DNA of 64,000 nucleotides from positions 43,422,277 to 43,486,276 of the forward strand of contig NC_065543.1 of the NCBI RefSeq assembly GCF_932294415.1, given 5' to 3'. This document shows, in pieces, positions 3,431 through 32,196 of the stretch (position 1 is the first letter of the stretch; the number at the start of each line of letters is the position of its first letter). Source of the DNA: Quercus robur (lineage: Eukaryota; Streptophyta; Magnoliopsida; Fagales; Fagaceae). The translations under genes and the position numbers were made by a program. Under the pieces are notes generated by a model. The model saw only the letters and a program-made list of their open reading frames with translations. It was not told where the DNA came from and searched no databases.

Positions 3431-3699
3431 CGCCATCGGAGTTCCCTAACTCCCAGTCGATTGCTCGGATGGATTATTTATAAATCATCAGCCTTGGACG
3501 ATATTCACACGCTTATCACAGAATATCCAACTGATATCCCGGTTAGTTTCTTAAGTCTGATTTATTACAAATTATCGATATAATGCCTGATAGTGCTGAC
3601 AGATGAGAGTTGATTAGATTATGCTTCAAAGTAGTTTTATCACAAATATTCTCAAAGCAACACATACATAGAGCACATTCGTTCACAAAGTTGTGTTGC

Positions 3700-6555: not shown

Positions 6556-7173
6556 TGTGGGGCCCGACAACAATTGGGCCAGATCCATCTGTTCACAGGA
6601 AGACTTAAGGCCCAAGCCGAAGAAGATAGTATTCCAAGCCCAATAGCGCAAAGCACCAATGGGCCAGAAAAGCCGCCGAGGAGGGTACAGCCCCCGGATG
6701 GCCCAGAGCTACACTAAGGAAAGGGGCAAAAGCGGCATAGGGATAATCTTGTAAGAAATCTAAAATATCTAGGAAAGGCTGCCCATACTACCTGCCCTAG
6801 ACAGAGCTTTGTCTCTCACAGAGTCGTGTTTCTTTAGCCCACTCAACCACTCCCAACAACTCGGGTCCGAAACTGATGGGACAAGTATCAGTCTTGGAAA
6901 GTTCAGCCCTACACGTGGACTAAGGAAATTGAATGCACGCTAATATAAAAGGAAAATATGCAACCTAAAGGAGGGAGCTCCTCCAGTCCCACTAAAAGAA
7001 AAAGAGGTTTCAGAGGCAAATATACTGGAACCATGCATAAATATCTTAACAAAAACACAGCCGGGTAAACATGGCTTAGCCTTTCGATCCCACTCTCTAC
7101 AAATGATATTGTACGGGCCCATTTACGTGCGAACCCAACTCAACGGCGGTTTAACGCAAATCGTGTGCCTACA
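6556..7173 (+). repeat. 3' LTR of element A
   Basis: 618 bp, with about eight substitutions against the 5' LTR. It is followed by the target-site duplication GTAAA at 7174-7178. Confidence 0.93.
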
Positions 7174-7560: not shown

Positions 7561-7663
7561 TTAAATGTAAATAAAAACTTATTAAAATGACATTTCAATG
7601 AAAAAATAAAAATATAATTATCTAAAAAATACTTTTATTTTATGATAAAACTTAGATATAATT

Positions 7664-8390
7664 TGTAGGGGCGGTTTTTGGGGCTCAAGCCCAACAGGCA
7701 AGCGATTCTGGCCCAAAAGTCCCTCAACAATGAATTTGTAGAGAGTAGGTTACATAACTAAGTCTTGACAGAGTGAACATAGTTATGAACAAGCCATGCA
7801 ACCATTTGGACGTGGGGATATTCCTCTAAGCTACCTGGGATAACAGTCCGTAGAGCTGTATCCTGTGCTTTGTTTCTCCAACTCCTTTTCTCTTTTTCTC
7901 TGCCTTTTCTCCCTCTCTTCTGCGATACCCTGGCCATGGGGACTTTCTTCTCTTATATAGCATCCTTTCTACGATAATGACCCTACACTTGTTCTGGGCC
8001 TCTACTTGAGTGCCTGTCCCATAAGACATCCTCCTTCTTTTCTGTGAGTTGCACTGGCCAAGATAATTTTGTTCTCCTGTCCTTTCCACATTAATGCGGC
8101 TGGAAAAGTAGCTCCTTGGCATTTAATGCGGCAGTTGTGGTTGCCCCCCCCCCCCGGCGAACGTCATGCACTCTTCCTTGATATTGGATGACCTTTCGTC
8201 ATGTAAAGGGTGTGAATCGGACTACCATTTGGTGCGTCCGAGGAGGTACTCCTCCTCGGACACCCCTAAGCAAGCCCAGCCCATCATGATTGGGCTAGGG
8301 GGTCCTCTGCCCGTGTCCTCGCTTCTTATTGTGGTTGGGCTTAGTACAAGTACTATGGCCCAACGTTGACTGGCGAACTTTACCCCCACA
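7664..8390 (-). repeat. 3' LTR of element B
   Basis: 727 bp, beginning TGTGGGGG on the minus strand and ending CCCTACA. It contains a TATA-like CTATATAAG (minus, about 7960-7952) and an 11-bp perfect hairpin at 8236-8261. It lacks a duplicated 16-bp stretch found in the other LTR. Confidence 0.93.
8234..8263. promoter_or_regulatory. LTR hairpin, left copy of element B
   Basis: GTCCGAGGAGG (8236-8246), loop TACT, CCTCCTCGGAC (8251-8261): a perfect 11-bp inverted repeat. The right LTR copy extends to 13 bp, so a single transition shortened this copy. The arm contains GTCCGAGGA, the same motif as in every unit of the internal array. Confidence 0.7.
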
Positions 8391-8881: not shown

Positions 8882-11325
8882 ATGGGTAGGCTTGAGAAAA
8901 TGGTAGATTCTCCGGCCGGTATGGCGGGCTTCAGGGCGAAGTATCGTATTCCACCGGAGGTAGGTTTAGAGTACTGCCATCAGGAGGACATTTTGTTCAA
9001 GAGGAAAACAGGGGAAGTCGCAATTCCAATGATAGCCTTCATGGAAGGAGGAATGACGATTCCAATGGGGAGAATAACTAGGGATTACCTACGTGGTCAT
9101 AGATTGGCCCCCCATTAATGCACCGCAAACCTGTACCGGATCCTGGGGTGTGTCGACGCCCTGAACGATCAGATGAACCTCGGCCTTTCATGGCACGACG
9201 TGGTTCATCTTTATGAATGCCATAAGCTCGGCGACTCATACTATCTAAAATCCAGGACTGACGAAGTGAGGTTAATATCCTGCCTTCCGAAGTCCAGCAA
9301 AGGCCTGAAGGACGACCATTTGATCGTCTCCGGACCATGGCATGACGGCCCTCACTGTCCGACTAGGGCGGGAATGCCAGGTGGGGTGTCGTAGAACTAG
9401 ATTCCGTGGGGAGGACCTTAGTTTTGAGCTCCTCTCCCTCCTTTTTCTTTTTATTTTAAATTTGTTGGTTTGGTTGCATGTCTCCTCGGACTAACATAAA
9501 ACTTTTAACGGCCTTTGCAGACAAGGAGCGAACATCCCCTCGGCTGAGCTCGGTCAACATCCAGGCTCTAAATTACCTCATGAGGTCCGAGATTTTCGTT
9601 AGCGAGGACGGACAACTACGGTCGGCCCCTTTGATTTTGGACTACGTTCCACTCACTCGATCCCTGGTGGAAGCCGGACAAGCTATAAAGGCTGGCAGTC
9701 CGAGATTGGCACGCATTGACGTATCCGTACCAGGGTTTCTCACTGCAACAGACTTGCCTCCTATTCAGTTACCTCCCCAACGCGCCTTTCCCCCAGTAGT
9801 TATCCCGGAGGAAGAGGCTGGTTCATCGCATTCATCCCTAGAGGATCAGATAGACCAGTTTCAATTTACCGAGGAAGGGGAGGCGTTGGTCAGAGTAGTA
9901 GAGCTCTCCGACTCTGTCGCTGATTTAGACCGCGCCTCAGTGGCTCCTGGTACTGGTTTGGTCATCGCACAACCTGATATCAGCGAAGACACAGAAGAAG
10001 AAGAAGGAATGGATCTCCAGCCAAGGACTGGCCTCAGGGGCCTTCTATCTAACAGGTCCAAGGGGCAGACCTCCAAGGACGTCTCGAAGGGACAGACTGC
10101 CCCTAAAGCTCCCGTTCCTCCTCTCCCTCCCTCGTCGGATGCGGCGCTGCAGCCTATGCCTAACTTAAGGCGAAAAAGGCCCGTAGAAAAGACGGAGGAG
10201 GGAGAGATTGCCCGTGAAAAGGCCGGGCCTAAAAAGAAGGGCAAGGAGACGAAAGAGCCCCGAGAGAAGAGGACCAGGTCCACTGAGAGCCGAGACGAGG
10301 CGGCCATTCTTAGGGGACAACGAACATGGTCTCCTCGGATCGAGTTGGACGGCGCCCCAATCCCCTAGGATGCGACCCTATGGGAATCCCAACGAGAGCA
10401 GGCATCATTCTTGGCCGAGGCCCTGCAGCAGCCTCTTCTCTTGCCCCGTGATATGGAGGGTCTCAGAAAGACTCGTCAGCCAGAACTGTTCATGTCACTG
10501 AAGAGGGACATGGCCATGGTAAGTGAAATCTTCTATCTTGTCTCTATACTGTGTACCCTCTTATCGTCATGTTTTAATAGTGTTTTCATTTCCGTCCGAG
10601 CACAGGTCACTCAACAAATTTATGTTGCTGAGGAGTGGGCCAAGAAGGCTCGTGAGGACATGCATAGGGAGGCTCAGTCCCGTTCAGCAGCTGAGAGGGC
10701 CGCTGGCGATCTCAAACGAGATTTTGATCGTCAGAGTAATGAACTAAAGGAGGTGAAGAAGGCTAATGCGAGTGCAGAAGCTGGCCTCAAAAATGCTGAA
10801 AAGCAAGCTGATAAGCTGCGCAAACAGCTCCGCCAATCTGAGGAGAAGCTGACAGCGGAGCAACAGGCGGTTTCAGAGCTTAAGGCTGAGCTTGCAAGGA
10901 CGAAAGAGGAAGCTCGCTTGTCCAGGGAAGCTGCCGAGAAGGCCGTGGCGGCTTCATATGAACGTGGAGTCCACGATACTGAGGAGAGACTGGCCGAGGA
11001 AGTTGCCACCGTCTGCAGGGAATACGTCACCATGTCCTGGGGTGTAGCCCTGGATTGGGCAGCCGTCCCAGCAGATTCTGATCTCAAGAAAGCTGAGAAC
11101 ATCTTTTTCCCGGAGGAGATACGCGAGGTTCCTGACGAGGTCGCCTCTACTGAGCCTCCTCCAACAGACTCCTCTGTTCCCGAGGCTGGGGGCACGGAGC
11201 AAGCCACGCAGGGCCAGTCACCCGAGGACAGTCTTCGCATCAACGAGATTCTTGCACAGGCCCAGGAGATTGCCCCGGAGAACCCAGCAGCGGATGATCA
11301 GCCTGCTCCGACTCAGGGCTCTTAG
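8882..11325 (+). pseudogene. Antisense aORF of element B (three exons, two stops)
   Basis: Exons 8882-9380, 9521-10518 and 10606-11325 join in frame into about 738 codons with GT-AG introns at both junctions. Element C has introns at the same codons. Start ATG follows the TATA box by 208 bp. The N-terminal 165 residues (KYRIPPEVGL, IPMIAFMEGGMTIPMGRITR, LSWHDVVHLYECHKL) resemble the 'putative gypsy type transposon' domain (Transposase_28-like). The middle is acidic and S/P/K-rich with basic clusters, and about 140 residues near the C-terminus form a coiled coil rich in A, E, K and Q. The gene is convergent with gag-pol. Two in-frame stops (TAA at 9116, TAG at 10366) break it. The first is a glutamine codon in C, so the ancestor was open there. 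Molecular function is unknown. Confidence 0.75.
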
Positions 11326-11591
11326 GGACGTAGTATAGGAATTCATTTGTTTTGCTTTTTGTGCTTCGTTTTGTTTAACATTGCTAATGTTTGTGAACCG
11401 AGCTACTTTGAAGATTAAATGACAAAAGTTATTTCATTTCAGATATCGTTGCTCTATTCTATTTTGTTTTCATCACGAATGGATATTGGTTTTATCATTT
11501 TACTGCTGAAAGTTAAGTATAAATGAATGAGTACGTTAGAATAGCGATAATCCATAATTAGGCAAAAACGGCTACGAAGCTGATTTCTCCT

Positions 11592-12133
11592 AAGTCCGTG
11601 GCTGAGAATCCGTGCAGGACTTGGGCTCCATTTAACACTTAGTGAGAATCGCATAACGGTTAATTTCCCCCAAGTCTGTGGTCCGGGGAGCCATACAGGA
11701 CTTGGGTTCTGTTTAACACTTATTGAGAATTGTGGCGTGGTTAATTTCCCCCAAGTCTGTGGTCCGAGGAGCCATGCAGGACTTGGGTTCTGTTTAACAC
11801 TTATTGAGAATCGTTGTGTGGTTAATTTCCCCCAAGTCTGTGGTCCGAGGAGCCATGCAGGACTTGAGTTCTGTTTAACACTTATTGAGAATCGTTGTGT
11901 GGTTAATTTCCTCCAAGTCTGTGGTCTGAGGAGCCATGCAGGACTTGGGTTCTGTTTAACACTTATTGAGAATCGTTGTGTGGTTAATTTCCCCCAAGTC
12001 TGTGGTCCGAGGAGCCATGTAGGACTTGAGTTCTGTTTAACACTTATTGAGAATCGTGGTGTGGTTAATTTCCCCCAAGTCTGTGGTCCGAGGAGCCATG
12101 CAGGACTTGGGTTCTGTTTAACACTTATCCCAA
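11592..12133 (+). repeat. 81-bp tandem array of element B
   Basis: Seven units with the AAGTC core at 11592, 11672, 11753, 11834, 11915, 11996 and 12077. Spacing is 81 bp except the first, which is 80. Each unit holds CCCAAGTC and GACTTGGG as a perfect 8-bp inverted repeat around GGTCCGAGGAGCCATGCA. The array lies exactly between the 3' ends of the convergent aORF and gag-pol. A 142-codon open frame on the plus strand is only a consequence of the 3n period. Confidence 0.93.
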
Positions 12134-12174
12134 ATAGTTGTATAGTAACACGGCATCAAGTATAATGTCTTTCA

Positions 12175-15100
12175 TTAATAAAAGTACCTTTTCAGGTTAT
12201 TTACATTCCACGGACGTGGCACTACACGTTCGTCTAAGTCTTGCAAAAAGTACGCTCCAATGCCGGCCACGGATGTGATACGGTATGGGCCCTCCCAGTT
12301 TGGTCCAAGCTTTCCCCATGTAGGGTTCCTCACGGTGCCCAGGACTTTCCTCAGCACTAGATCCCCGGGCGTCAAGGGCCTCGACTTCACCTTGGCGTCA
12401 TAGCCCTGTTTGAGCTTTTACTGATAGTAAGTTAGGTGCACCATCGCGCTTTCCCTTCTCTCTTCAAGGAGGTCCAGGCTTTTTTCCAGAAGTCCGTCGT
12501 TAGCAATGGGGTTGAATGCAGTAGTCCTCTGGGAGGGAAAGTTTATCTCTAATGGGATGACGGCCTCGGCCCCGTAGGTCAACGAAAAGGGGGTTTCTCC
12601 CGTGGACCTACGAGGCGTGGTGCGGTACGTCCACAAGACATGGGCTAGCTCTTCCACCCACCTCCCTTTCACGTCGTCCAACCTCTTCTTCAGTCCATTC
12701 ACTATGGTTTTGTTGATGGCTTCCGCCTGTCCGTTACTCTGCGGGTAGGCTGGTGTGGAGTATCGGTTGACAATCCCCAGTTCATTGCAATATTCCCTAA
12801 AGGCCCTGTTGTCAAACTGGAGGCCATTGTCCGAAATCAGGGTGTATGGGGTCCCGAACCTGGTGACAATATTTTTCCAGATAAATTTCTTGACATCGAC
12901 ATCCCTAATGTTTGCCAGCGCTTCAGCTTCGACCCATTTCGTGAAGTAATCGGTGCCGACGAGAAGAAACTTCTTGTTCCCGGCAGCTTTGGGGAACGAC
13001 CCTAGTATGTCTAGGCCCCATTGTGTGAATGGCTAAGGGCTGGACAACGGGTTAAGTACTCCGCCCGGCTGATGTATGTTCGGGGCGAACCTTTGGCATT
13101 AGTCGCACTTCTTCACATATTCCAGAGCCTCCTTATGCATGCTCGGCCACCAGTAACCCAGCGTCATGGCCCTGTGGGAGAGGGACCGGCCCCCCGTATG
13201 GCTTCCGCAAATCCTTTCATGCAACTCCTCCAGGATGAGTTCCGTAGCCCCTGGGTGCACACACAGCAAGTATGGCCCTAAGAATGAGCGTCTGTAAAGT
13301 TTGGAATCGTCGGACAACCAGAATCGAGAAGCTCTCCTCCTGATTTTGTCAGCCTCAACCTTATCGTCCGGTAAGGAGTCGTGCTTTAAGAACCGAACAA
13401 GAGGGTCCATCCAGCTTGGTCCCTCCTCGACGCTGTGTACCCGAATACCATTGGGCTCTTCTTCCGTTGGGCGGCAGAGGTCTTCAACTAAAATAACCCG
13501 CGGAAGGGGCTGAGCCGAGGAGGTGGCCAGTGTCGCTAGAGAATCAGCGTGGGTATTCCCACTTCTAGGTATATGCGTTAAACGGAAGTCGACGTAATAG
13601 GCCCGCAGGTGTTTAGCCCGGGCAAGGTACCCTCGCATTCTTTCATCCTTCGCCTCCAATTCCCCATTTACTTGCCCCACTATGAGTCTCGAATCTGAGA
13701 ATATGCTCGCGCATTTCCCACCCAACTTCCGGATCATAGACATCCCCTCCAACAATGCCTCATACTCGGCTTCGTTATTCGTTGCTGGGAATCCCAGCCT
13801 CAACGACTTTTCCAAGGTCATACCTTCGGGAGAGATTAGAACGAGTCCCACACCGGAGCCCCTTTGGTTTGCTGCTCCATCGATGTATGCTCTCCACTTG
13901 TCGTGTTCTTGCTGAGAGATCGTGCCGACCAATTTCCTATCGGCACTCGGTGATCCCGACACTTCCACCCCTTCTAAGGTGGGCTCCGCGAATTCAGCTA
14001 CCAGATCGGCGAGGACCTGACCCTTTATGGCGGTGCGAGGCATGTATCTAATGTCGAAGGCGCCCAAGATGGTTCCCCATTTAGCTATTCTTCCTGTGTA
14101 GTTGACGCTACGGAGGACTGATTTCAGTGGAAGTTAGGTTAGCACAACTACTGTATGTGCCTGAAAATAGTGGGGGAGCTTCTTTGTAGCTTGCACGACG
14201 GCCAATATTGCCTTTTCGAGGGGGAGGTACCGGGTCTCCGCCTCTTGTAGTGATTTTCTTATGTAATACACGGGCCGCTGCGCGCCATTGTCCTCTCGGA
14301 TTAGCACTAGGCTCACCGCATGAGCGGCGACTGCGATGTATGCGTACAACACCTCATTGGCGTTGGGATTGGACATGATCGGTGGTCGGGCGAGGTATTC
14401 CTTGAGCTGTTGGAAGGCTAAATCACACTCTTCAGTCCACTCGAAACCTTTCCACTTGTGCAGTAGGAGGAAAAAAGGCCTGCATCTGTCCGCTGAGCGG
14501 GAGATGAAACGGTTTAAAGCGGCTATCATGCCCGTAAACTTCTGGACCTCTTTGAGATTCCGAGGAGGCTGCATGCTATGAATGGCTCTTATTTGGTCAG
14601 GGTTAACCTCGATTCCTCGGTGGGTTACCATATAGCCCAGGAATTTCCCTGATCCCACCCCAAATGAGCATTTGGATGCGTTCAGTTGCAGCTTGTACCT
14701 TCTCAGAATTTGAAACACTTCGCCGAGGTCTCTGATGTGGTCGGCCGCCAATTTACTCTTTACTACCATGTCGTCTATATACACCTCGATAGTTTTGCCC
14801 ATCTACTGCTCAAACATCCTAGTCATCATCCTTTGATAGGTTGACTCGACATTCTTCAGGCTAAAGGGCATCACCTTGTAATGATAGTTGCCAATTGGGG
14901 TGACGAAAGCAGTTTTTTCCTGGTCTTCGGTGGCCAAGGATATCTGATGGTAGCCCAGGAAAGCGTCCAAAAAACTCATTCGGGGATGCCCGACAGTCGC
15001 ATCTACCAGTCGGTCTATCCGCGGCATCGGGAAAGGATCCTTCGGGCAGGCCTTGTTTAAGTCCGTGAAGTCCACGCAGACTCGCCGTTTCCCGCTCTTC

Positions 15101-15501
15101 TTCTTCACCACGACTGTGTTCGCCAACCATTCGGGGTAGAATACTTCCTTAATAGCCCCAGCTCTCTTCAATTTTGTGACTTCCTCTCTCACAGCATCTG
15201 CATGCTCCTTTGACGGGCGCCGGGGAGGCTGCTTCTTCGGTGTAATAGCTGGGTTAACATTAAGGTGATGGCGTATGAGGTCTGTATAAACCTCGGGGGC
15301 TTCGTAAGGATCCCAGGCGAATACGTCCTCATTTCGTCGAAGAAAATTAATTAGCGCTGACTTCTCCTGTGCTGGTAATTCCGAGCCAATTTGGAAAAAC
15401 TTCTCGGGGTCTGATCCGATGAGCACTTTCTCCAGCTCCTCACAGCTCACCTCCATGGCCGGTCCTCCATTACCCGTAGTTAGGACCGGGGTCCTTGATT
15501 G
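12175..15501 (-). pseudogene. pol: pol of element B: RT, RNase H, second RNase H, integrase
   Basis: Read in one frame from the UAG at 15504 to the final stop at 12175. RT shows VCVDFTDLNKACPKDPFP and the catalytic YIDD near 14785. It is followed by the element's own RNase H remnant, then a second RNase H (DGAANQRGSGVG, NNEAEYEA, FSDSR, HADSLA, near 13900-13540) that keeps its acidic residues. Integrase has the HHCC finger (ending VKKCD at 13102) and the D,D,E core between about 12940 and 12720. Stops interrupt it at 14803, 14134, 13099, 13033 and 12418. Each replaces a Gln or Trp codon when compared with element C, and no frameshift is needed. The element is therefore defective now but structurally complete. 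Confidence 0.9.
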
Positions 15502-15504
15502 CTA
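15496..15504 (-). promoter_or_regulatory. Candidate readthrough stop UAG-CAA-UCA at the PRO/RT junction, element B
   Basis: The gag-PRO frame ends with TAG (15504-15502). The next codons are CAA TCA, and the same frame runs open into RT (first ATG at 15456, 48 nt on). UAG-CAR-YYA is the leaky-stop context known from tobamovirus-type readthrough. Element C has the stop at the same place, inside a shared AGCTTATAGCAA, while protein sequence on both sides is unrelated between the elements. Confidence 0.6.
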
Positions 15505-17514
15505 TAAGCTATTCCCGGCTGAAGTGGAAGGTCCGCTGCTTGATCGTCGAGAAATTGCCGACACCATGCATTGTCTGGCCATTCCTTGGTCCCCTACTAT
15601 CTCTTTGATTCGACCTTCTGACGGATATTTCACTTTTTGGTGCAGGGTTGACGACATAGCCCCTAGTGCATGAAGCCATGGCTGTGCCATAATAGCTGTG
15701 TAGGGGGAGTATGCATCTACCACGATGAAGTCCACTTCCACTACTTCTGAGTCTGTTTGCACAGGCAGCCTAATCATGCCTTTCGGGATGACGACTTTTC
15801 CTTCGAAGCTAAGCAGGGGTGAATCGTATGGCGACAGGTCCTCCTGCTTCAAGTTCAGCCCCCTATACAAATCTGGGTACATTATCTCCACGGCGCTACC
15901 CTGATCGACTAACACCCTCTTCACGTCATAACCTCCTATTCTGAGCGTCACGACTAGGGCGTCTTCATGGGGTTGAATAGTTCCTTCCTTATCCTCCTCC
16001 ATGAACTCGATTAATGGCGGGGCCCTCACTCTGGCTCTCTTGGATCCTCTTTCGCCTGGCTCTGTCGGGAACCTACCCACTGACATTACTTTGAACGGGC
16101 CGGAACCGGTTCTCCCAGGTGCGGCAAGAATGACATTTATCGTGCCTATGGGTGGCGTCAATACGCCTTGTCTGGTTTCGACATTCGACTGCTCAGGGCG
16201 GTGCAACAGATGCCTTAGCTTTCCTTCTCGGACAAGCCGATCCAAATAGTTTTTCAGGTTCCTGCATTCGTCAGTGGGGTGACCGGGCTGTTGATGATAC
16301 GCACAGTATAGATTCTGATTGCGTTTTGAGGGGTCGCCTGCCATCCGGTTCGGCCACTGAAAGAAGGGTTCGTGCTTTACTTTCTCCAGGATCTCGTGCA
16401 ATGGTTCTCGGAACACAGCGTGGATTACCTGAGCCCCAGTAGGTCCAGACTGTTCCATATAATCTCTTCTCGGCTTGTTACTACTGCTGAAGCGGTCCGA
16501 CCTGAAGTCCTTCCTCTCCTGAGGGACAACCTTCGCCTTTCCCTTCCCAATCTGCTGGTCCTCCTCGACCCTTTTGTACTTGTCTATCCTGTCCATGAGT
16601 TGTCGCACGCTGGTGACTGGCTTCCCAGTGAGAGACTTTCTCAAGCCATGCTCTGTCGGCAGGCCCCTTTTGAATGTACTGATGGCGACGTCATCGTAGT
16701 TTCCTTCTATCTCGTTGTACGTTTCCCAATATCTTTCCGAGTAGGTCTTTAGCGTTTCTCCTTCTCGCATGGATAAGGATAAGAGGGAATCGAGGGGCCG
16801 AGGGACTCTCGTGCTGGTGATGAAACGGGAACCAAAAGCCTGCGTCAGCTGTTTAAAGGAATCTATGGAATTCGGTGGGAGGGCATCAAACCATCTCATT
16901 GCCAGGGGTCCCAAGTAGGATGGAAGCACCTTACACATTAACGCCTCGTCCCTGGAGTGGACGGCCATCCTCTAGTTGAATTGGCTCACGTGCTCCACTG
17001 GGTCGGTTCGACCATTGTATATGGCAAACGTTGGCTGATTGAACCACCGAGGAAGCATCGCCCTCTCTATTCTACGTGTGAATGGCGACTGGGAGATTCG
17101 ATCCAGGGCCTTGCTCATGGCGTCATTGGCCAGGCCTTGGTAAGACGGGCTTTTGCGGCCGCGCTTTCGAGGCCGTTCTTCCTCATAGGAAAGCGTCTCG
17201 CTCGGAGGGGTTGTCGACCTTCGCCTGTATTCACCGTCCTCACCACTGCTAGCGTCCGAGACGGGTGAAGGACGTTTTCGCTGGGCTCGACGCAGCTTCT
17301 TCTTCAAATCGTCAATCTCTTGTTGTAGAGCCTTTCGCTCGTTGTGCTGGTGGGACGTGTGATCCTTCCTTTTCGAGCGACTTCTATTCGTGTGAGAGGT
17401 GTTCACACTGCCCTCTCGTTGATGATCTTGGTCCTTCGCTCGTTCGAGGTTTAGAAAGTTGTCCTGTCGTTGAGATTCTGCACGTCCGGTTTGGCGCGGA
17501 CCTAATCCTTCCAT
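15502..17514 (-). pseudogene. gag: gag-protease of element B
   Basis: Start ATG at 17514 lies about 50 nt past the PBS, as in C. The N-terminus is basic and charged (EIDDLKKKLRRAQRKR). The retrotransposon gag domain follows (residues from FAIYNGRTDPVEHVSQFN to LMDRIDKYKRVEED). A zinc-knuckle-like CAYHQQPGHPTDEC and an aspartic protease domain (VVTLRIGGYDVKRVLVDQGS) come next. Two features point to inactivity. A TAG at 16972 replaces the Gln codon found in C, and the protease active site reads D-Q-G where C has the usual D-S-G. The frame ends at the conserved TAG at 15502. Confidence 0.9.
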
Positions 17515-17565: not shown

Positions 17566-17567
17566 AT

Positions 17568-18312
17568 TGTAGGGGTGGTTTTTGGGGCTCAGGCCCAACA
17601 GGCAAGCGATTCTGGCCCAAAAGTCCCTCAACAATAAATTTGTAGAGAGTAGGTTACAGAACTAAGTCGTTACAGAACTAAGTCTTGACAGAGTGAATAT
17701 AGTTATGAACAAGCCATGCAACCATTTGGACGTGAGGATATTCTTCTAAGCTACCTAGGATAACAGTCCGTGGGGCTGTATCCTGTGCTTTATTTCTCCA
17801 ACTCCTTTTCTCTTTTTCTCTGCCTTTTCTCCCTCTCTTCTGCGATACCCTGGCCATGGGGATTTTCTTCTCTTATATAGCATCCTTTCTACGATAATGA
17901 CCCTACACTTGTTAATCATCTGAGCCTCTACTTGAGTGCCTGTCCCATAGGACATCCTCCTTCTTTTCTGTGAGTTGCACTGGCCAAGATAATTCTGTTC
18001 TCCTGTCCTTTCCACATTAATGCGGCTAGAAAAGTAGCTCCTTGGCATTTAATGCGGCAGTTGTGGTTGCCTCTCCCCCCGAACGTCATGCACTCTTCCT
18101 TGATGTTGGATGACCTTTCGCCATGTAAAGGGTGTGAATCGGACTCCCATTTGGTGCGTCCGAGGAGGTACTCCTCCTCGGACGCCCCTAAGCAAGCCCA
18201 GCCCAACATGATTGGGCTGGGGGGTCCTCTGCCCGTGTCCTCGCTTCTTATTGTGGTTGGGCTTAGTACAAGTACTATGGCCCAACGTTGACTGGCGAAC
18301 TTTACCCCCACA
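17568..18312 (-). repeat. 5' LTR of element B
   Basis: 745 bp with the same termini as 7664-8390. Compared with that copy it carries a short internal duplication (CAGAACTAAGTC repeated near 17657) and several transitions. It is followed by the TAATT target-site duplication. Confidence 0.93.
18156..18185. promoter_or_regulatory. 13-bp LTR hairpin, right copy of element B
   Basis: GCGTCCGAGGAGG, loop TACT, CCTCCTCGGACGC: a perfect 13-bp inverted repeat. It is upstream of the TATA region of the LTR in the element's sense. It carries the GTCCGAGGA motif on both strands. Confidence 0.75.
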
Positions 18313-20753: not shown

Positions 20754-21431
20754 TGTAGTTGCACGATTTTCCTGGTCCAAACCCTATTGATCAGGCCTTG
20801 GCCCGAGACGCAACACACAATAAATATTTGTAGAGGATGGGTCAAAGAACTTAGCCTCAGTGAGCTTAGTCGGTCTGATGCATGGACAATATTATTGCAG
20901 GAATAAAAACACAAGAATGGATATCTCACAGAAGATTCTATTTCCTGAGTGCCTAATACATTTCTTTGTCCCCCTCTTTGAGGGACTCCACTATATTATA
21001 TAACTCTCTCATTCTTATCTGAACCTTACACTTGTTGATCATCTAAGCCCCCACTTGAGCACCTGTCCTATCAGACACCCTTATCACTCCCTTGTGAGTT
21101 GCAGTGGCCAAGGTAGTACTGTTCAGGGGTCTTTTCCTCATTAATGCGGCCAAGAGGGTGGTTGTGACACATTTAATGTGGTGGTGGCAGCTTTCCATGA
21201 GATATTTTGGGTTTTATTCTTTTTTTATATGCTTGGAGGATGAACTGCAATGGTTGGGGCGAGCTCTTCGTCCGAACTTCGTAATGTCCGAGGAGGAGTT
21301 ACTCCTCGGACAGGTTTCTTTTACCGCAATTGGGCTTGAATAAGGTTTTGGCTGTGACTTCTCCTCGGACAGGATGCTTCTCGGACAGGCCCGTAGTTTG
21401 ACTAGCCCATTATTTTGGGCCGAGCCCCACA
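20754..21431 (-). repeat. 3' LTR of element C
   Basis: 678 bp, minus-strand start TGTGGGGC and end AACTACA. It contains an intact 11-bp GTCCGAGGAG hairpin (21285-21312). Confidence 0.93.
21285..21312. promoter_or_regulatory. 11-bp LTR hairpin of element C
   Basis: TGTCCGAGGAG, loop GAGTTA, CTCCTCGGACA. The other LTR (about 32044-32071) has the same hairpin damaged by transitions in both arms. It is equivalent to the hairpin in the LTR of B although the LTRs share little other sequence. Confidence 0.7.
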
Positions 21432-21446
21432 ATAGCCCCTCAAAAC
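21432..21446 (-). other. Polypurine tract of element C
   Basis: GTTTTGAGGGGCTAT on the minus strand next to the 3' LTR, the same as in A and nearly the same as in B. Confidence 0.75.
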
Positions 21447-21697: not shown

Positions 21698-21974
21698 ATG
21701 TCAGAGGGGTTCAGTTTTCTTTTTATCTGCATCTCATAAACCCCAGAGGATTCCAGAGAACTCCATCGAACTCCAGAGATCTACAAATACTTGCATCCGC
21801 TAAGCCTCCATAGCCGTTTTTCGTGAAGCATCTCCTCCAAGAGAGATTTCCAGGCATCCCATTGGGCGTTTTGTGAAGGTATCAGTAAATTTCGTTCATT
21901 TCGTCGTTCCGATTCCCTCCTCGGACTTTACTTTTCTCCTCGGTCTTTATTTTCATTCCTCCAGTTCATCTCAG

Positions 21975-24408
21975 ATGGGTAGATTCGAAAAACTAGTAAA
22001 AACTCCGGCCGCTATGGAGGCCTTTAGGGCAAAATACCACATTCCCCCAAGGGTGGGGCTGCAGTACTGTCCTCTTGAAGGAGTATTGACAGATAGCGGC
22101 GAGGGAGAAATTGTTATCCCCATGATTGCTTTCATAAAGGGAGGGATGACACTTCCCATGCGTAGGATTACAAGGGAATACCTGTTCAACCATAGGTTGA
22201 CGCCGCATCAGTGTGCCCCAAACATGTTCAAGATACTAGGCTGTGTAGATGTCCTAGACGAGCGGATGAATCTAGGCCTTACCTAGCACGATGTGGTTTA
22301 TCTGTACGAGTGTCACCACATCGAGAACGAAGGGTATTATCTTAAATCCCGATCTGAGGTCGTTAGGTTGATCTCTTGTCTCCCAATATCCAATAAGACC
22401 GTGAAGAACGATTTCCTTATTGCTTCGAGGGAATGGTTCGATGGTATTCATTGTCCAACTCGGGCAGGAATCCCAGGTGTGACGTCTTTAGGGCCAATCC
22501 TTTTCGGGAAAGGGTTTAGTATTGGGGGGTTATTTTTCTCGCTTTCTTTACAATTGGAAAATTTCATGAACTAATCCCACTTTTCTTGGACGTTTGCAGA
22601 TAAAGCTCATGTCGCTCCTCGGCTAAACCTCGTGAATGTGCCGGCGTTGAACTACCTTCTAAGGTCGGAAATTTACGTAACTGAGGACGGACAGTTACGT
22701 GCGACACATCTGGTTTTAGGCTATCAACCTCTAAGCCGCTTTTTCCAAGCTATCGGTCACGCCATAAGGGCTGGCAGTCTGAGGTTGGCTAGGATTGACG
22801 TGTCTAAGACTGAGTTCCTAGCTCGACGTGATCTTCCACCAGTCGTATTACCCGGCGTTCGAAATCCCTATCTAGCAGAGCAACTACCTCTGGCAGACGA
22901 GCCTGGCGTTGCTGTTCTGGTTGAAGGGGAAGCCGAATCATCTCGTCTTTCCCTTGAGGAAGAGATAGACGAGTTTTATCTCGAGGAGGAGGTTCAGCAA
23001 GCCCCCTTGGTTGAGCTTTTTGATCCTGAAGGAGAGCAGGACCAACACTCCGCAGTTGGTGCTCCCATAATCATAACCTGCTCGGACGACCCCTCGGACA
23101 AAGAGATAGAACCCATGGCCGGGAAGGGAAAAAATTTACGGGAGTTGATGGCCTCCTGAGGGAAAGGTCAATCATCAAAAGGTCAGTCATCAAAAGGACC
23201 AACTCAGTCACAGGCCGAGACCCTTCCCCCTGTGGTCTCTCAGATTCCCTCGGACCTAGGCCTTAAGGTTAATCCGGACCTGAAGAAGAAAAGGCCGGTT
23301 GACACTCCTGAGGAGGGTGAGGTGGTTGCCCAGTCGACCAAGCAGCAAAAGACCACCCGGACGCCAAGAAGCAGAAGGGGTGACTCTGCGGAAAGCCGGG
23401 ATGAGGAGAACCGTGCTGAGGTACGCGCCACCCCACGCACATGGAGCCCCAAGTTGGAGCTAGATGGGGTTGCCATTCCCTACAATGCGTCAATCCGAGA
23501 GTATAACCGGGGCCGAGCAGGGTACGTAGCTGATGCCTTGGAGCAACCCCTACTCCTCCCTCGGGATATGGAGGCCTACAGGCAGTTCTCTCAGCCCGAG
23601 ATTTTCCTATCCCTCAAAAGGGATCTCGCGATGGTAAGTGACCCTTTTACTGTTTTATTAATTTATTTAACCCCGTCAAATTTTAAACCAGTCTTGTTTC
23701 GTTCGCAGATTACTCAGCAGGTATTTGTGGCGGAGGAGTTTTGTCGTGATAATCGCAGTCGGGCTGAGGCTGAGACCCAGTCTCGGACGGAATATGGAGA
23801 AAGCCTTGGGGTCCCTTAAGCACAATCACCTTGAACTCGCGGAGAAGTTCAAGGAGTCGAAGAAACGGCGCAAGAGTGCAGAGGCCGGTTTGAAAAGTGC
23901 TGAGACCCAGGCGAAGGATCAGCGCAAAGAGCTGTACTCAACCCAGATCAACCTTGCCACCGAGAAGCAGGCAGTGCTGGATCTCAAGGTTGCCCTGCAG
24001 AAAGTCGAGGATGAGTTGCGGCGGGTCAAAGAGGAGGCTCAACTGATCTGAGAGGCTGCAGAGGCTGAAAAGAGTGCTTCTCGCCAGCTCGAGGTCCAAG
24101 AAACGGAGGCCAGGCTATCCAAGGAGATCCCCGAGGTGTGCAGGGACTACTGCAGCATCTCATGGGCTCATGCCCTTGATGCTGCAGGAATTCTTGCGGA
24201 TTCGGCGCTGAGACTGCCCGAGAACATCTTCTATCCTTAGGAGATCCGAGAGAATCCTGATGGCGCCTAAGCGGCTTCAGAACAGGATCTGGCGGTGCTT
24301 GATGCCTTCCCTGTGCCTGATAAAGCGAAGGATCCTGCCACGGACCTTACCATCGAGGCTCCTCCTCCTCAGCTAGAGCAGAAAGAAGATCCTCATGCTA
24401 AGTCTTAG
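21975..24408 (+). pseudogene. Antisense aORF of element C (three exons, decayed)
   Basis: Homologue of the aORF of element B with exons 21975-22476, 22600-23633 and 23709-24408. Both introns sit at the same codons as in B. The N-terminal Transposase_28-like region (KYHIPPRVGL, IPMIAFIKGGMTLPMRRITR, HDVVYLYECHHI), the variable middle and the C-terminal coiled coil all align with B. Damage: TAG at 22284 (Trp in B), TGA at 23157 (Arg in B), a frameshift near 23790-23820, TGA at 24049, TAG at 24238 and TAA at 24268. None of these is shared with B, so both descend from an open gene. It ends beside the 81-bp array. Confidence 0.72.
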
Positions 24409-24479: not shown

Positions 24480-24770
24480 AATGAGAGTCGTCCTGTTTTT
24501 GTGCTCTTTTGTAGGGACCTCTCTTTATATTGACCTCGGAATATTAATATAGAATGTTTGCCTTGCTTTCTATGGATGTATGCTAGTACCGCTCCCTTTT
24601 TTTTTTTTAACGTTTGCAACGACATAAATAAATGTAAACGGTCGAGATAAAAAGGATGCTGGGCAGCGAATTTGAATGAGGGTTGCAATGGTGCTAGACT
24701 ACGTGCACGCCTTAAAATGATTTCCCCTAAGTAATAATTTCCCAATCTGTCATAAGTAATAATTTCCCCT

Positions 24771-26045: not shown

Positions 26046-26104
26046 TAAATAGACCAGTAGGGAGAGGATAATCACGAAACAAAACATGGGCTAAGCCACT
26101 TTCA

Positions 26105-29100
26105 TTAATAATAATATCTTCTGAGGTTATTTACATTCCATGGTCGAGGTACAGTTTTTTCATCCAAATCTTCTAGATAGTAGGCGCCTATCCCGACCAC
26201 GGATGTGACACGGTATGATCCTTCCCAACTGGGCCCCAGTTTGCCCCAAGAGGGGTTTTTTGCGCTGCCGAGAATCTTCCTCATCACGAGATCACCTGGA
26301 CCTAGAGGTCGCAGTTTAACATTGGCATCATACCCTTGTCTCAGCTTCTGGTGATAATAAGCCATATGGATCGTTGCTTTTTCCCTTCTTTCCTTGGCTA
26401 GGTCTAGACTTCTTCCCAACAACTCGTCGTTACCGTTTTGGGTAAACGAGTTAAACCTCAGTGTGGGAAAGTTGTTCTCGATTGGGAGCACGGCCTCAGC
26501 CCCATAAGTCAACGAAAAGGGGGTCTCATCGGTTGATCGTCGCGGCGTTGTCCTATAGGTCCATAAGACGTGCGGGAGCTCTTCTACCCATCTCCCCTTT
26601 GCCTCATCCAGTCTTTTCTTCAGTCCGTTCATTATGACCTTGTTCATGGCCTCGTCTTGCCCATTTCCTTGGGGGTAGGCGGGGGTGGAATATCGGTTAA
26701 TGATCCCAAACTCGCGGCAATACTCCCTAAAGCTCTTACTGTCGAATTGAAGACCATTGTCAGAAATGAGTGTACGTGGAGTTCCGAAGCGGGTGATAAT
26801 GTTCTTCCAGATGAATTTCTGGGCATCCATGTCCCTAATGTTGGCCAAAGGTTCAGCCTCCACCCATTTAGTGAAGTAATCGGTTCCGACTATTATGTAT
26901 CGCTTGTTCCCCACAGCTTTGAGGAAAGGTCCGACAATATCAAGACCCCATTGTGCGAACGGCCATGGGCTAGAGAGGGGGGTTGAGAATCCCTTCGGGT
27001 TGGTGGATATTTGGGGTAAATTTTTGGCACTGATCACACTTCTTAGCGTATTCTTGGGCCTCTCTTTGCATGTTCGGCCACCAGTATCCTTGGGTGAGTG
27101 CTCTGTGTGCCAATGACCTTCCTCCGGTGTGACTTCCACAAATTCCCTCGTGTAACTCTTCAAGTAGAGACTCAGATTCTTCTGGATGTACGTAGAGTAG
27201 GTACGGTCCAAAGTAGGAGCGCCGATATAGTTTGTAGTCCTCCGATAGCCAGAACCGAGGAGCATTCCTCCGTACCTTCTCGGCCTCCAACTTTCCCTTT
27301 GGTAGGATGTCATCTTGGAGGAAGTTCTTTATGGGATCCATCCAGCTGGGGCTCTTTCTGATCTGATGGACCTGGGCCGGGTTTCTTCTAATGGGACTTG
27401 CTTGGACTAGATCTTCGACAAGGATCATTCGCGATAGATTATGCGCCGAGGACGTGGCGAGAGTGGCCAGTGAGTCTGCATGGGTGTTTACACTCTTGGA
27501 AATGTGCGTCAGATTGAAGGACTCAAAACTCGTCTGTAGGCGTTTGACTTGTCCTAGATACTCTTGCATCCTAACATCTCTGGCTTCCAGCTCACCCATC
27601 ACTTGTCCGACGACCAACCTGGAGTTTGAGAATGCTTCTATTACTCTTCCGCCCAATCTTTGAACCATCGTCATCCCTTGAAGTAAGGCTTCGTATTCGG
27701 CTTCATTGTTCGTAGCCGAGAACCCGAGCCTCAATGATTTTTCAATGGCAGCACCGTCTGGCGATACTAAAACTATTCCGACTCCGGATCCTCTCTGGTT
27801 GGCTGCGCCATCCACATAGACCTTCCAATGCAAGGTTCCTCCTGCTGAAATTGTGCCAACCGACTTTCCATCCATGTCTTTTTGCTCGGTTATTGTTTCT
27901 ACAGAGGGTTTAGCAAACTCTGCTACCAAGTCTGCGAGGACCTGACCTTTGATGGAGGATCTGGGCATATATTTAATATCGAAGGCCCTCAAAAGCGCAC
28001 TCCACATGGCGATCCTTCCTGTGTAGTCAGCGCTTCGAAGCACTGCTCGAAGGGGGAGCTGAGTTAGAACGATGACCGTATGCGCCTGAAAGTAATGAGG
28101 GAGCTTCCGGGTGGCATGTACTATTGCCAGAATTGCCTTTTCCAAAGGTAGGTATCGCACCTCGGCCTCATGTAATGATTTGCTCACATAGTAAACCGGT
28201 CGCTGCACCCCATTATCATCCCGTATCAGTACAAGGCTTACAACATGGGGAGCTACAGCGACGTACGCAAACAGCACCTTGTCTGCCTTAGGGCTGGACA
28301 TGATGGGTGGTCGAGACAGGTATTCCTTAAGCTGCTGGAAAGCCCTAACACAATCCTCCGACCATTCAAACCCTTTCCACTTGTTTATCAGGAGGTAAAA
28401 AGGTCGACATTGATCGTCTGATCGCGATATGAACCGGTTTAATGCTGCAATCATGCCAGTGAGCTTCTGCACTTCCTTCGGATTCCGAGGAGCCTGTAGG
28501 TTGTTAATTGCTTTGATTTGATCGGAGTTTACTTCTATTCCCCTGTGGGTTACTATGTACCCTAAAAATTTCCCAGACCCGACCCCGAATGAACATTTGG
28601 AAGCATTCAGCCGCAACCGGTGTTCCTTTAAGATAGCGAAGATTTTTTCAAGGTCTTTCACATGCTCGGACACCCTTTTACTCTTCACAACCATATCGTC
28701 TGTGTAAACCTCAATGATCTTGTCCAGCTGTGGCTTGAACATCCGGGTCATCATCCTTTGGTAGGTTGAGCCTGCATTCTTCAGCCCAAACGGCATCACC
28801 TTATAGTGATAATTTCCGATGGGCATTATGAAAGCCGTCTTCTCTTGGTCTTCTAGCACAAGGGGGATCTGATGATAGCCCTGGAAGGCGTCCAGGAAGC
28901 TCATTCGAGGGTGACCCACGGTTGCATCCACCAATCTGTCAATTCGGGGAAGGGGGAATGGGTCCTTTGGGCACGCCTTGTTCAAGTCCGTGAAGTCCAC
29001 GCAGACTTTCCACTTCCCTATCTTCTTCCTTACCACCACCGTGTTTGCCAACCATTCGGGGTAAAAGACCTCTTTAATAGCCCCTGCTTTTTTCAGTTTT

Positions 29101-29420
29101 GCCACTTCGTCTCTTACGGCACTAGCATGTTCCTTTGAAAGGCGTCGGGGTGGCTGCTTCTTCGGAGTGGAAGAGGGGTTGACGTTCAGGTGGTGACAAA
29201 TAAGGCTAGGATTAACTCCCGGGGCGTCGTAGGCGTCCCATGCAAACACATCGACATTCCCTCTGAGAAATCTGACCAGTTCCTCTTTTTCTTGAGAAGG
29301 CAACTCAGAGCCGACCTGAAAAAACTTCTCCGGGTCGTTGTTGACAGCGATCTTATCTAAACTTTCGCACCTTATCTCCTCGGCTAGCCCATCGCCTTGC
29401 TTTGCCGAGGTGGCTGGTTG
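26105..29420 (-). pseudogene. pol: pol of element C: RT, RNase H, second RNase H, integrase
   Basis: Open from just after the UAG at 29423 through RT and both RNases H to 26970 (over 800 codons). RT has VCVDFTDLNKACPKDPFP and YTDD at the catalytic site. The second RNase H has DGAANQRGSGVG, NNEAEYEA and HADSLA, but the FSDSR aspartate of B is N here (FSNSR), which should harm catalysis. The integrase zinc finger ends KKCDQCQKF. After it, near a GGGGGG run around 26977-26983, the frame shifts, and the D,D,E core (VGTDYFTKWVEAE, ISDNGLQFDS, NGQDEAMNK) continues in another frame to 26105. One indel and one active-site change are the main defects. Confidence 0.9.
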
Positions 29421-29423
29421 CTA
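29415..29423 (-). promoter_or_regulatory. Candidate readthrough stop UAG-CAA-CCA at the PRO/RT junction, element C
   Basis: TAG at 29423-29421 is followed in frame by CAA CCA, again fitting UAG-CAR-YYA. The frame then stays open through RT. It sits in the same AGCTTATAGCAA as in element B. Confidence 0.6.
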
Positions 29424-31460
29424 TAAGCTCTTAAAGGCCGAGGACTCGGCACGGGGCCGATGTAAGATGGCGGCCACCATACACTGCCTGGCCACGGCCT
29501 GATCTCCTCAGATCTCTTCTACTTGTCCTCTGGATGGGTATTTTACTTTTTGGTGAAGTGTGGAGGATACGGCTTCTAGGGTGTGGATCCATGGCTTGGC
29601 AACTATTGCGGTGTAGGGTGAGTAAGCGTCGACCACGATAAAATTTACCTCCACCACCTCCGACCCAGTCTGTATGGGTAGTCGGATATGCCCCTTTGGC
29701 GTAACAATCCTCCCTTCGAAGCTGAGAAGGGGGGAGTCATAGGCTGTCAAATCTTCCGGTTTCAGGTTCAGCCCCTTGTATAGATCAGGGTACATTATCT
29801 CTACCGCACTTCCCGAGTCTACTAACACCCTTTTCACATCGAAGCCTCCAATTCTTAACGTAACCACCAAGGCATCGTCGTAAGGTTGAATAGTTCCTTT
29901 CTTATCCTTGTCCGAGAATCCCAGTATCAAAGAGCTTCGTTTTTTTGACCTTTTTGGTTCCCTTTACCTGTCCTCGGAAGGGAGCCGATCAATAGCCAGT
30001 ACCCTGGGGATGGGTGGCCCAGTTCTTCCTGGTGCGGCGAGGATGACATGTATTGTTCCGGCGGGGGGTCTTAAGGACACATCCTTTCGAGACTCTTGTA
30101 TTGCTTGACCGGGATGGCCGCTCGAGGGGTACAAAAGGTGACGTAACTTCGCTTCTCGGACCAACTGATCTAGGTGATTCCATAGATTCCTGCAATCCTC
30201 GGTGGTATGCCCATGGTCCTGATGATAGTGGCAGTACAGGTTCTGGTTACGCTTGGAAGGGTTTCCAGCCATCTTTCCTGGCCATCTGAAATAGGGCTCG
30301 TTCCTTACTTTCTCCAGCACTTGTTGTATTGGCTCCCTGAATACGGCGTTCACTGTCTGCGGGTTGCTCTATCCAGCCTGCCGCGAAAAATCTCTCCTCG
30401 GCTGGCTAAGGTTATACCGTTCTGACCTAAAATCACTTGCTTTGGGGGGGATGACCTTCTCCTTTCCCCTTCCTTGCAGCTGATCTTCCTCCACCCTTTT
30501 GTACTTGTTGATCCTATCCATCATCTGATGAACGTCGGTAACTGGTTTACCAGTGAGGGATTTCCTTAAGCCATGCTCGGTGGGGAGACCGCTTTTGAAT
30601 GTGCTGATAGCAACATCATCATGGTTGTCATCTAAGTTGTTATACACTTCCCAATATCTATCCGAGTATGCTTTTAGGGTTTCTCCTTCGTGCATGGATA
30701 AGGACAATAGCGAACTGAGGGGTCGAGGGACTCTGGTGTTTGTGATAAAATGGGAGCAAAAAGCCTGAGTGAGTTGCTTGTAGGAGCCTATGGAGTTTGT
30801 CTTTAGGCTGTTGAATCACCTCATCGCCATTGATCCCAAGCTGGATGGGAAGATTTTGCACATTAGGGCTTCATTTTGTGAGTAGATTGCCATTTTCTGG
30901 TTAAACTGACTCACATGCTCTACTGGGTCTGCTCGGCCGTTATAGATGGCGAACGTCGGTTGGTTGAAGCGTCGAGGCAGCTTTGCCCCTTCAATTTTAT
31001 ACGTGAAGGGTGACCTTGAAACCTGGTCCAGCGCCTTCTTCATAGCATTGTTCCCCGAACCCTTGTTGGATGGGCTCTCATACTTCCGTACAGGGCGTGG
31101 TTCCCTTTCGTAGGAAAAGGTTTCACTTGGGGGGGTCCTTGACCTCCGTCGGTAACTCGCATCCTCCGCATTAGAAGACTTGTCTGAGTCAGAGGGAGAT
31201 CATTTTCGCTGCACACATCGTAACTTCCTTTTCAGGTCATCTATCTCTCGTTGCATGGCCTGATGACTATTTCACCTCTGGGACACGTGACTACCTATTT
31301 GAGTGTGACTCTGGCTCGTCCGAATAGTATGCACACTCCCCTCATGATTCCCCCTGCCGCCTGGGTTGGCGGGGTTATTTTGCCTCTGGGACTTGGCGGG
31401 TTGTGTCTGTTGGGAGTTAGCTTGGTGAGGATTCTCCTGGTGTGGACCTAGTTCTGCCAT
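29421..31460 (-). pseudogene. gag: gag-protease of element C
   Basis: ATG at 31460, about 50 nt past the PBS. The gag domain (FAIYNGRADPVEHVSQFNQK to INKYKRVEED), the knuckle CHYHQDHGHTTEDC and the protease (RVLVDSGSAVEIMYPD, with an intact DSG) all lie in one frame. Private stops occur at 31272, 31200, 30816, 30369, 29964 and 29508. Where B can be compared, they replace Trp, Arg or Gln-type codons. Only the last stop, TAG at 29421, is shared with B. The protein would be a gag-PRO precursor for particle assembly and processing. Confidence 0.88.
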
Positions 31461-31513: not shown

Positions 31514-32191
31514 TGTAGTTGCACGCTTTTCCTGGTCCAAACCCTATTGATCAGGCCTTGGCCCGAGGCGCAACACACAATAAATATTTGTAGAGGATGG
31601 GTCAAAGAACTTAGCCTCAGTGAGCTTAGTTGGTCTGATGCATGGACAATATTATTGCAGGAATAAAAACACAAGAATGGATATCTCACGGAAGATTCTA
31701 TTTCCTGAGTGCCCAATACATTTCTTCGTCCCCCTCTTTGAGGGACTCCACTACATTATATAGCTCTCTCATTCTTATCTGAACCTTACACTTGTTGATC
31801 ATCTAAGCCCCCACTTGAGCACCTGTCCTATCAGACACCCTTATCACTCCCTTGTGAGTTGCAATGGCCAAGGTAGTACTGTTCAGGGGTCTTTTCCTCA
31901 TTAATGCGGCCAAGAGGGTGGTTGTGACACATTTAATGTGGTGGTGGCAGTTTTCCATGAGATATTTTGGGTTTTATTCTTTTTTTATATGCTTGGAGGA
32001 TGAACTGCAATGGTTGGGGCGAGCTCTTCGTCCGAACTTCGTAATGTCCAAGGAGGAGTTACTCCTCGGATAGGTTTCTTTTACCGCAATTGGGCTTGAA
32101 TAAGGTTTTGGCTGTGACTTCTCCTTGGACAGGATGCTTCTCAGACGGGCCCGTAGTTTGACTAGCCCATTATTTTGGGCCGGGCCCCACA
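31514..32191 (-). repeat. 5' LTR of element C
   Basis: 678 bp, the same length as the left copy. TATA-like TATATAAT-type sequence lies in the middle on the minus strand. It is followed by ACTAC, the target-site duplication. Confidence 0.93.
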
Positions 32192-32196
32192 ACTAC

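What the first reader, a model, noticed from the sequence alone, without database searches (positions are those of the whole stretch)
15496..15504. A UAG-CAR-YYA readthrough signal may control gag-PRO versus pol expression
Seen: in element B the gag-PRO frame ends in TAG followed by CAA TCA, and the same frame continues open into RT. B's gag-pol (17514-12175) is one frame with no frameshift. Known: UAG-CAR-YYA is the leaky context behind tobamovirus-type readthrough, and retroelements often limit pol by recoding. Inference: this stop is functional, unlike B's six other stops, because element C has it at the same junction inside the same 12-mer (AGCTTATAGCAA) while the protein on both sides is unrelated between B and C.
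Basis: partly seen in the sequence, partly recalled or inferred. Interest (0 to 1): 0.85.

Follow-up and report, generated by a model that had tools for sequence, protein, structure and literature searches.

The report
Leaky stop codon in oak retrotransposons
Oak retrotransposons of one lineage carry, between their protease and reverse-transcriptase genes, a stop codon in the same leaky sequence setting that tobacco mosaic virus uses, and its conservation across the copies examined suggests that a small share of ribosomes read through it to make the replication enzymes.

Summary
Element B has TAG-CAATCA at 15504-15496 (minus strand), in frame between PRO and RT; element C has TAG-CAACCA at the homologous point. 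Five hexamers occur, all CARYYA; the four misses are single C-to-T changes. Of 150 B-type copies scored, 34 have an uninterrupted pol frame of exactly 1108 codons starting right after this stop; none is longer. B's six other stops look like private decay. Proteins that run through carry Q, Y, W, E or L, a set that only TAG reaches in one step. Most likely this is programmed type I readthrough setting Gag-PRO against Gag-PRO-Pol. An Ogre-type intron is the main rival. Neither translation nor splicing was measured, and some relatives, perhaps a whole subfamily, have a sense codon here. The signal is known; I found no report of it at this junction.

The parts
15502..15504 (-). element B: TAG stop at the PRO/RT junction
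   Evidence: homologous stop in 149 of 150 junction copies read
15496..15501 (-). element B: CAATCA, fits CAR-YYA directly 3' of the stop
   Evidence: CARYYA in 146 of 150 junction copies
15499..15510 (-). element B: shared 12-mer AGCTTATAGCAA
15502..17514 (-). element B gag-PRO frame (one decay stop at 16972-16974), ending in the leaky-type TAG
   Evidence: (PF03732 gag; no Pfam match was reported for the protease part)
12178..15501 (-). element B pol frame (RT, RNase H, aRH, INT), 1108 codons from the junction stop to the terminal TAA at 12175-12177, with five decay stops
   Evidence: (PF00078, PF17919, PF17917, PF13456, PF17921, PF00665); same 1108-codon length uninterrupted in 34 of 150 copies
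29421..29423 (-). element C: homologous TAG stop at the PRO/RT junction
29415..29420 (-). element C: CAACCA, fits CAR-YYA
26970..29420 (-). element C: first part of the pol frame after the junction stop (816 codons)
   Evidence: domains by similarity to B, no Pfam scan of C
29508..29510 (-). element C: extra in-frame TGA in PRO, probably decay; several relatives read EIRGDQ here
7663..8390 (-). element B 3' LTR
   Evidence: 93.3% over 750 columns to the 5' LTR
17567..18312 (-). element B 5' LTR
20754..21432 (-). element C 3' LTR
   Evidence: 97.6% over 679 columns
31514..32192 (-). element C 5' LTR

Best explanation
The TAG at 15502-15504 is a programmed, leaky stop codon of a Ty3/gypsy element of Tat/Retand type in oak. 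Most ribosomes end there and release Gag-PRO. A minority decode UAG with a near-cognate tRNA because of the CAR-YYA context (type I, as in tobacco mosaic virus) and continue in the same frame into RT-RNaseH-aRH-INT, giving a small amount of Gag-PRO-Pol. Shown here: the stop and the hexamer are conserved across four subfamilies, the frame is kept on both sides, pol frames are intact directly downstream in many copies, and the sense variants are all one step from TAG. Inferred: that ribosomes read through, at what rate, and that this sets the Gag:Pol ratio. Element B itself is decayed (six other stops), so the function belongs to the family, not to this copy.
For: (1) 150 junctions located by RT-side protein matches, so not selected for the stop (B and C included): stop in 149 (143 TAG, 6 TAA; 1 TAT); CARYYA in 146; the four others are TAA-YCA, one C-to-T change. 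(2) The hexamer varies only as CAR-YYA allows: B-type CAATCA/CAATTA, C-type CAACCA, P0107-type CAATCA/CAACTA/CAATTA, P0120-type CAATTA/CAGTTA. (3) In 90 B-type copies the 9-mer is less variable than all 33 other (overlapping) codon-aligned 9-nt windows near it; in 30 C-type copies 6 of 33 are as quiet or quieter. (4) Uninterrupted pol frames bounded by this stop, my count from the tables: 34 of 150 B-type (1108 codons), 9 of 150 C-type (1104), 45 of 140 with query P0003 (1104; overlaps C-type). (5) 93 of 120 listed PRO relatives end exactly here (90 by script, 3 by eye). (6) 27 colinear proteins that run through have Q19, L2, Y2, W2, E2 at the stop column, a set reachable in one step only from TAG; the next residue is Q in 27 of 27, then L21/S6. 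(7) Where relatives could be aligned at B's six other stops they have sense residues: Q 7/7; Q109 plus 42 other of 151; Q 22/22; Q 2/2; W 2/2; Q 3/3 (these are predicted proteins, so a stop could not show). (8) No 3' structure beyond chance (z 0.39, -0.04, -0.50, -0.36), as type I needs none. (9) In planta the TMV context gave 32% and BNYVV (CAA UYA) 11% readthrough (PMC2754532, passages).
Against: No translation or transcript data. Copies within a subfamily share ancestry, so 150 copies are not 150 independent tests; the independent part is the agreement between four subfamilies and the protein relatives. Open variants exist: one C-type copy with CAG, L172 with TAT, and 27 proteins. Among 51 database proteins from short contigs 9 run through, far more than in the own genome; many of these belong to one group (EL/DL-Q-QLKP), in which the stop may have been lost for good, although other members of that group end at it. 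In C-type copies the 9-mer is not the quietest window (6 of 33). Codon -1 is also conserved (TTA 115, TCA 5 of 120), which the type I motif as defined does not include. Four annotated models appear by eye to resume right after the TAG, as if its AG were a splice acceptor (P0072, P0261, P0266, P0305). A direct alignment of relatives through the junction from B's own context found none (0 aligned), because the linker is too divergent.
Confidence: 0.83

Rival explanations
1. Ogre-type splicing: the stop belongs to an intron between PRO and RT that is removed from some transcripts, with the AG of the TAG (or a downstream AG) as acceptor. Unspliced RNA gives Gag-PRO, spliced RNA gives Gag-PRO-Pol.
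For: The sister clade Ogre has an intron at this point, spliced from a subset of transcripts (PMC6317226, passages). 45 named protein models of Quercus and Castanea lack all or part of the linker; four by eye resume at the Gln right after the TAG (P0072, P0261, P0266, P0305).
Against: Ogre ORFs are separated by 274 bp on average; here a single codon separates two frames in register (PRO motif in frame with the stop in 116 of 120 junctions). In the 45 models the largest gap starts at 23 different places and ends at 25 (pairwise alignment, largest gap only; it covers the stop column in 37), which looks like ad hoc bridging by annotation software. The 20 nt before the TAG are on average 54% pyrimidine. 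Splicing does not explain why +1 to +6 keep CAR-YYA.
Confidence: 0.1
2. Decay: CAG (Gln) at this site was turned into TAG by deamination of methylated C in silenced copies; the stop has no function.
For: Gln is the commonest residue in proteins that run through (19 of 27), and B's other stops stand where relatives mostly have Gln or Trp. One C-type copy has CAG here.
Against: Stop in 149 of 150 junctions and in copies with an intact pol frame, while at B's other stops the relatives aligned are sense. W, Y, E and L also occur, and no codon but TAG gives the whole set in one step. By contrast the C of CAR was lost in only 4 of 150.
Confidence: 0.03
3. RT-INT is translated separately, by reinitiation or internal initiation at a Met just downstream of the stop.
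For: 83 of 90 B-type copies have their first Met at codon 16 after the stop, and 110 of the 111 RT-side database proteins that start below the junction start with Met.
Against: None of 30 C-type copies has a Met within 25 codons (33 of 120 overall), although 9 of 150 C-type copies keep an intact pol frame. Separate initiation needs neither TAG nor CAR-YYA nor a kept frame.
Confidence: 0.04

Closest known systems
Type I readthrough signal of tobamoviruses (TMV replicase; UAG-CARYYA)
   Same: UAG, the six following bases, same-frame extension. Definition from PMC5382211 and PMC2754532 (passages). Nine of ten P0120-type oak junctions read UAG-CAA-UUA, which I recall as the TMV hexamer; the passages give CAA UYA for TMV and BNYVV.
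   Different: Chromosomal LTR retrotransposon, not an RNA virus; extends Gag-PRO by RT-RH-INT instead of replicase by polymerase; readthrough not measured.
SIRE1 (soybean Ty1/copia), stop codon suppression
   Same: A plant LTR element with a single in-frame stop between two genes. I recall that it is UAG-CARYYA with about 5% readthrough; the paper is not held. Title seen in reference lists and described in PMC2194720 and PMC2829016 (passages).
   Different: Ty1/copia, at the pol/env-like junction; here Ty3/gypsy, at the PRO/RT junction, controlling pol.
Ogre (Tat clade sister of Retand), intron between PRO and RT
   Same: Control point at the PRO/RT boundary, Gag-PRO versus full polyprotein (PMC6317226, passages).
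   Different: Ogre separates the ORFs by an intron (274 bp on average); here one stop codon and a kept frame.
Murine leukaemia virus gag-pol UAG readthrough
   Same: In-frame UAG limits pol; about 5% readthrough (PMC2194720, passages).
   Different: MLV needs a purine-rich spacer and a 3' pseudoknot, and its stop precedes protease (recalled); here the stop follows protease and no structure stands out.

Membership tests
Type I (UAG-CARYYA) programmed readthrough | stop codon is UAG | tested here: met
   143 of 150 junctions TAG, 6 TAA, 1 TAT; only TAG explains the whole set of sense variants in one step
Type I (UAG-CARYYA) programmed readthrough | CARYYA directly 3' of the stop | tested here: met
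   146 of 150; 27 of 27 spanning proteins fit Q-(L/S)
Type I (UAG-CARYYA) programmed readthrough | long coding frame continues in register after the stop | tested here: met
   pol frame of 1108 codons uninterrupted in 34 of 150 copies; PRO motif in the same frame in 116 of 120
Type I (UAG-CARYYA) programmed readthrough | measurable readthrough in plant cells | not testable with these tools
   needs a reporter, ribosome profiling or mass spectrometry
Retand (Tat clade, Ty3/gypsy) | second RNase H domain (aRH) between RH and INT | tested here: met
   PF17919/PF17917, then PF13456, then PF17921/PF00665 in element B; criterion from PMC6317226, which Ogre shares
Retand (Tat clade, Ty3/gypsy) | RT phylogeny places it in Retand | not tested
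   no tree was built; an oak paper reports Retand and Ogre as the commonest Gypsy lineages (PMC10988972, passages)
Ogre | GAG-PRO and RT-INT ORFs separated by a spliced intron of about 274 bp | tested here: not met
   the two frames are separated by one stop codon; splicing itself was not testable
SIRE1-type stop suppression | stop between pol and an env-like ORF | tested here: not met
   the stop lies between the gag-PRO frame and RT

The most novel reading that the evidence does not exclude
A TMV-like UAG-CAR-YYA signal is the standard pol switch of a large retrotransposon lineage in Fagaceae (hundreds of copies in the oak genome, probably also in chestnut), kept by selection through several subfamilies. 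Two sister Tat clades thus regulate the same PRO/RT boundary by different means, Ogre by an optional intron and this lineage by stop-codon readthrough.
Probability: 0.6. Interest if true: 0.72.

Novelty: new variant of a known kind. Interest (0 to 1): 0.62.

Why it matters
It gives plant Ty3/gypsy elements a concrete, testable way to make less Pol than Gag. It would be a cellular, high-copy reservoir of the tobamovirus readthrough signal, useful for measuring how plant hosts set readthrough. It may also explain why gene models in oak and chestnut derived from these elements skip a stretch around this point with varying borders.

Tried and rejected
DNA copies from public collections: viral contigs and genome contigs, two scans each with RT and PRO alignments, found no relative. 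Structure 3' of the stop: no signal. Decay by CAG-to-TAG: rejected as the main cause. Fixed intron: not supported by the borders of 45 models, not excluded. An odd copy with a 1115-codon frame (C37:66867836) turned out to be rearranged, with no PRO sequence upstream in the piece read. Papers not held: PMC2596294, PMC1370496, PMC1315901. That I found no report of this signal at the PRO/RT junction rests on searches and the passages read; in the 2025 Retand paper (PMC11963269) the main text has 'stop codon' once, in the methods, and neither 'intron' nor 'readthrough'. Queries P0082 and the PRO piece of B were asked of the own genome while it was busy and never run.

Full report
What is there. 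Elements B and C lie on the minus strand. B has LTRs at 7663-8390 and 17567-18312 (93.3% identical), C at 20754-21432 and 31514-32192 (97.6%). B's frame encodes gag (PF03732), RT, RNase H, a second RNase H (PF13456) and integrase in the order of Tat-clade elements, with the second RNase H between RH and INT as reported for Ogre and Retand (PMC6317226 passages). The protease part gave no Pfam match; I name it from position and relatives. I did not build an RT tree, so 'Retand' is a likely, not a tested, label.

The observation. TAG at 15502-15504 is followed by CAATCA and the frame goes on into RT. C has TAG-CAACCA at the homologous place. Within 15 bases (AGCTTATAGCAAYCA) B and C differ only at the Y, whereas the other 276 aligned bases around it are 58.7% identical. 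The 9-mer alone is not rare in the window (6 hits, 3.94 expected).

Protein relatives. A search with the RT side listed 120 proteins (of 7038): nine extend upstream of the stop position, seven of them colinear and two (P0029, P0072) gene models that lack the linker; the other 111 begin downstream, 110 with Met. A search with the PRO side listed 120 of 415: 93 end exactly at the codon before B's TAG, 13 end earlier, 10 run through colinearly and 4 are gene models that lack the linker (three of the 93 were placed by eye because the motif filter missed them). Because length limits could hide long open proteins, I looked at the 51 whose contig, by my reading of the table, is under 2570 bases: 34 end at the junction, 9 run through, 8 end earlier. 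The list is the best-scoring part, so proteins that end much earlier are under-sampled.

Which codon. Across three searches 27 colinear proteins run through (a 28th, P0320, lacks the codon in the alignment and was left out). The residue at the stop is Q19, L2, Y2, W2, E2. No codon but TAG reaches all five within one change. The next residue is Q in 27 of 27 and then L21 or S6, all compatible with CAR-YYA; the third residue after the stop already varies. Many of the Gln proteins form one group, so in that group the stop may be lost; others of the same look end at it.

DNA copies in the own genome. The 12-mer has 499 places against 8 for its reversed control. For a sample not chosen by the stop I searched with RT sequence beginning after the stop; the tool scores only the best candidates (150 of 6647). 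B-type: the open frame is never longer than 1108 codons, exactly the distance from this TAG to the end of pol, and 34 of 150 are uninterrupted at that length (my count, taking the table's 'open frame' as stop to stop and 'none' as no stop inside the match). I read the junction DNA of 90 of the first 97 rows; the 7 left out were places already listed with the 12-mer, so leaving them out works against the claim. C-type: first 30 of 150 rows read; 9 of 150 have uninterrupted 1104-codon frames and one (1431 codons) is open past the site, where it reads CAG CAACCA (not among the 150 junctions). P0107-type, an old decayed subfamily: first 20 of 150 read. P0120-type: 10 plus-strand rows among the first 17 of 136 read. 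Together: TAG 143, TAA 6, TAT 1 of 150; CARYYA 146 of 150, the rest TAA-YCA. Five CARYYA hexamers occur, differing at R and at both Y positions and nowhere else. A spanning query of another type (P0041) matched 132 copies; by my reading of the table 131 contain a stop and 124 at least one TAG, though the position of those stops was not read and most of these copies hold several.

Constraint. In the 90 B-type copies the 9-mer has a mean minor-base fraction of 0.009, lower than all 33 neighbouring codon-aligned windows; in the 30 C-type copies it is 0.011 and 6 of 33 windows are as low or lower (ungapped register, overlapping windows). 14 of 24 junction copies found by the 12-mer have no other stop within 125 codons on either side. 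Three copies with the uninterrupted 1108-codon frame have LTR identities of 96.0, 96.6 and 98.6%. At B's six other stops the relatives that could be aligned (7, 151, 22, 2, 2 and 3) have sense residues, so these look like decay private to B, and B itself is not able to make intact Pol.

Mechanism. Type I readthrough (UAG-CARYYA) is established for tobamoviruses, where the hexamer is described as the sole signal (PMC5382211, PMC2754532, PMC2194720, passages). In planta, 32% was measured for the TMV context and 11% for BNYVV, with Tyr inserted at UAG. No structure 3' of the stop exceeds chance in B or C. The same frame is kept on both sides in 116 of 120 junctions; the other four appear frame-shifted upstream. 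I conclude that readthrough sets Gag-PRO versus Gag-PRO-Pol; the ribosomal event itself is inferred.

Rivals. An intron, as in Ogre, is the serious rival, because Ogre controls the same boundary by partial splicing and some annotated oak and chestnut models skip the stop, four by eye resuming right after the TAG. But in the 45 models that lack linker sequence the largest gap starts at 23 places and ends at 25, the sequence before the TAG is not pyrimidine-rich (54%), and splicing gives no reason for CAR-YYA. Separate initiation is unlikely because none of 30 C-type copies has a Met within 25 codons of the stop, while 83 of 90 B-type have one at codon 16. Decay fares worst (see rivals).

Known or new. 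The signal is known, and stop suppression in a plant LTR element is known from SIRE1 (title and short descriptions seen; details recalled). [quoted passage not shown] In ten literature searches I found no report of this signal at the PRO/RT junction of Tat/Retand elements. The supplement that could list ORF layouts per clade was not readable.

Noticed in passing
P0029, P0072, P0160, P0187, P0189, P0235, P0246, P0249-P0267 and others: 45 named protein models of Quercus and Castanea ('uncharacterized protein LOC...' for nearly all) are this retrotransposon with a gap of variable borders around the leaky stop, probably annotation artefacts.
   Followed up: partly
window 1348-1965 and 6556-7173: A third element (A, LTRs 98.7% identical over 618 bp) carries 81-bp tandem repeats and shows no gag-pol ORF of 150 codons or more between its LTRs; it looks like a young non-autonomous relative, opposite in strand.
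   Followed up: partly
window 2131-3483, 11564-12187, 24663-26177: 81-bp (27-codon) tandem repeats in or next to all three elements; the period keeps two frames open for hundreds of codons in element A (ORFs of 493 and 411 aa).
   Followed up: no
window 9460-11325 (B) and 21804-23819 (C), + strand: Extra ORFs antisense to gag-pol between pol and the 3' LTR. B's two ORFs have no Pfam match above the curated cut-off; C's were not tested.
   Followed up: partly
G000:C41:38667029, 38771625, 38872931: Three B-type copies about 100 kb apart with identical scores and one TAG inside the match each suggest a segmental tandem duplication of about 100 kb.
   Followed up: no
junction codon -1 (15505-15507 and homologues): The codon before the stop is TTA in 115 of 120 copies and TCA in 5; an upstream part of the signal may exist.
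   Followed up: no
oak group of P0194, P0162, P0173, P0218, P0055: In this group many database proteins have Gln, Leu or Tyr instead of the stop; a subfamily may have given up the stop.
   Followed up: no
P0017: A protein filed under Bacillus coagulans is a plant retrotransposon RT, so that record is probably contaminated with plant DNA.
   Followed up: no
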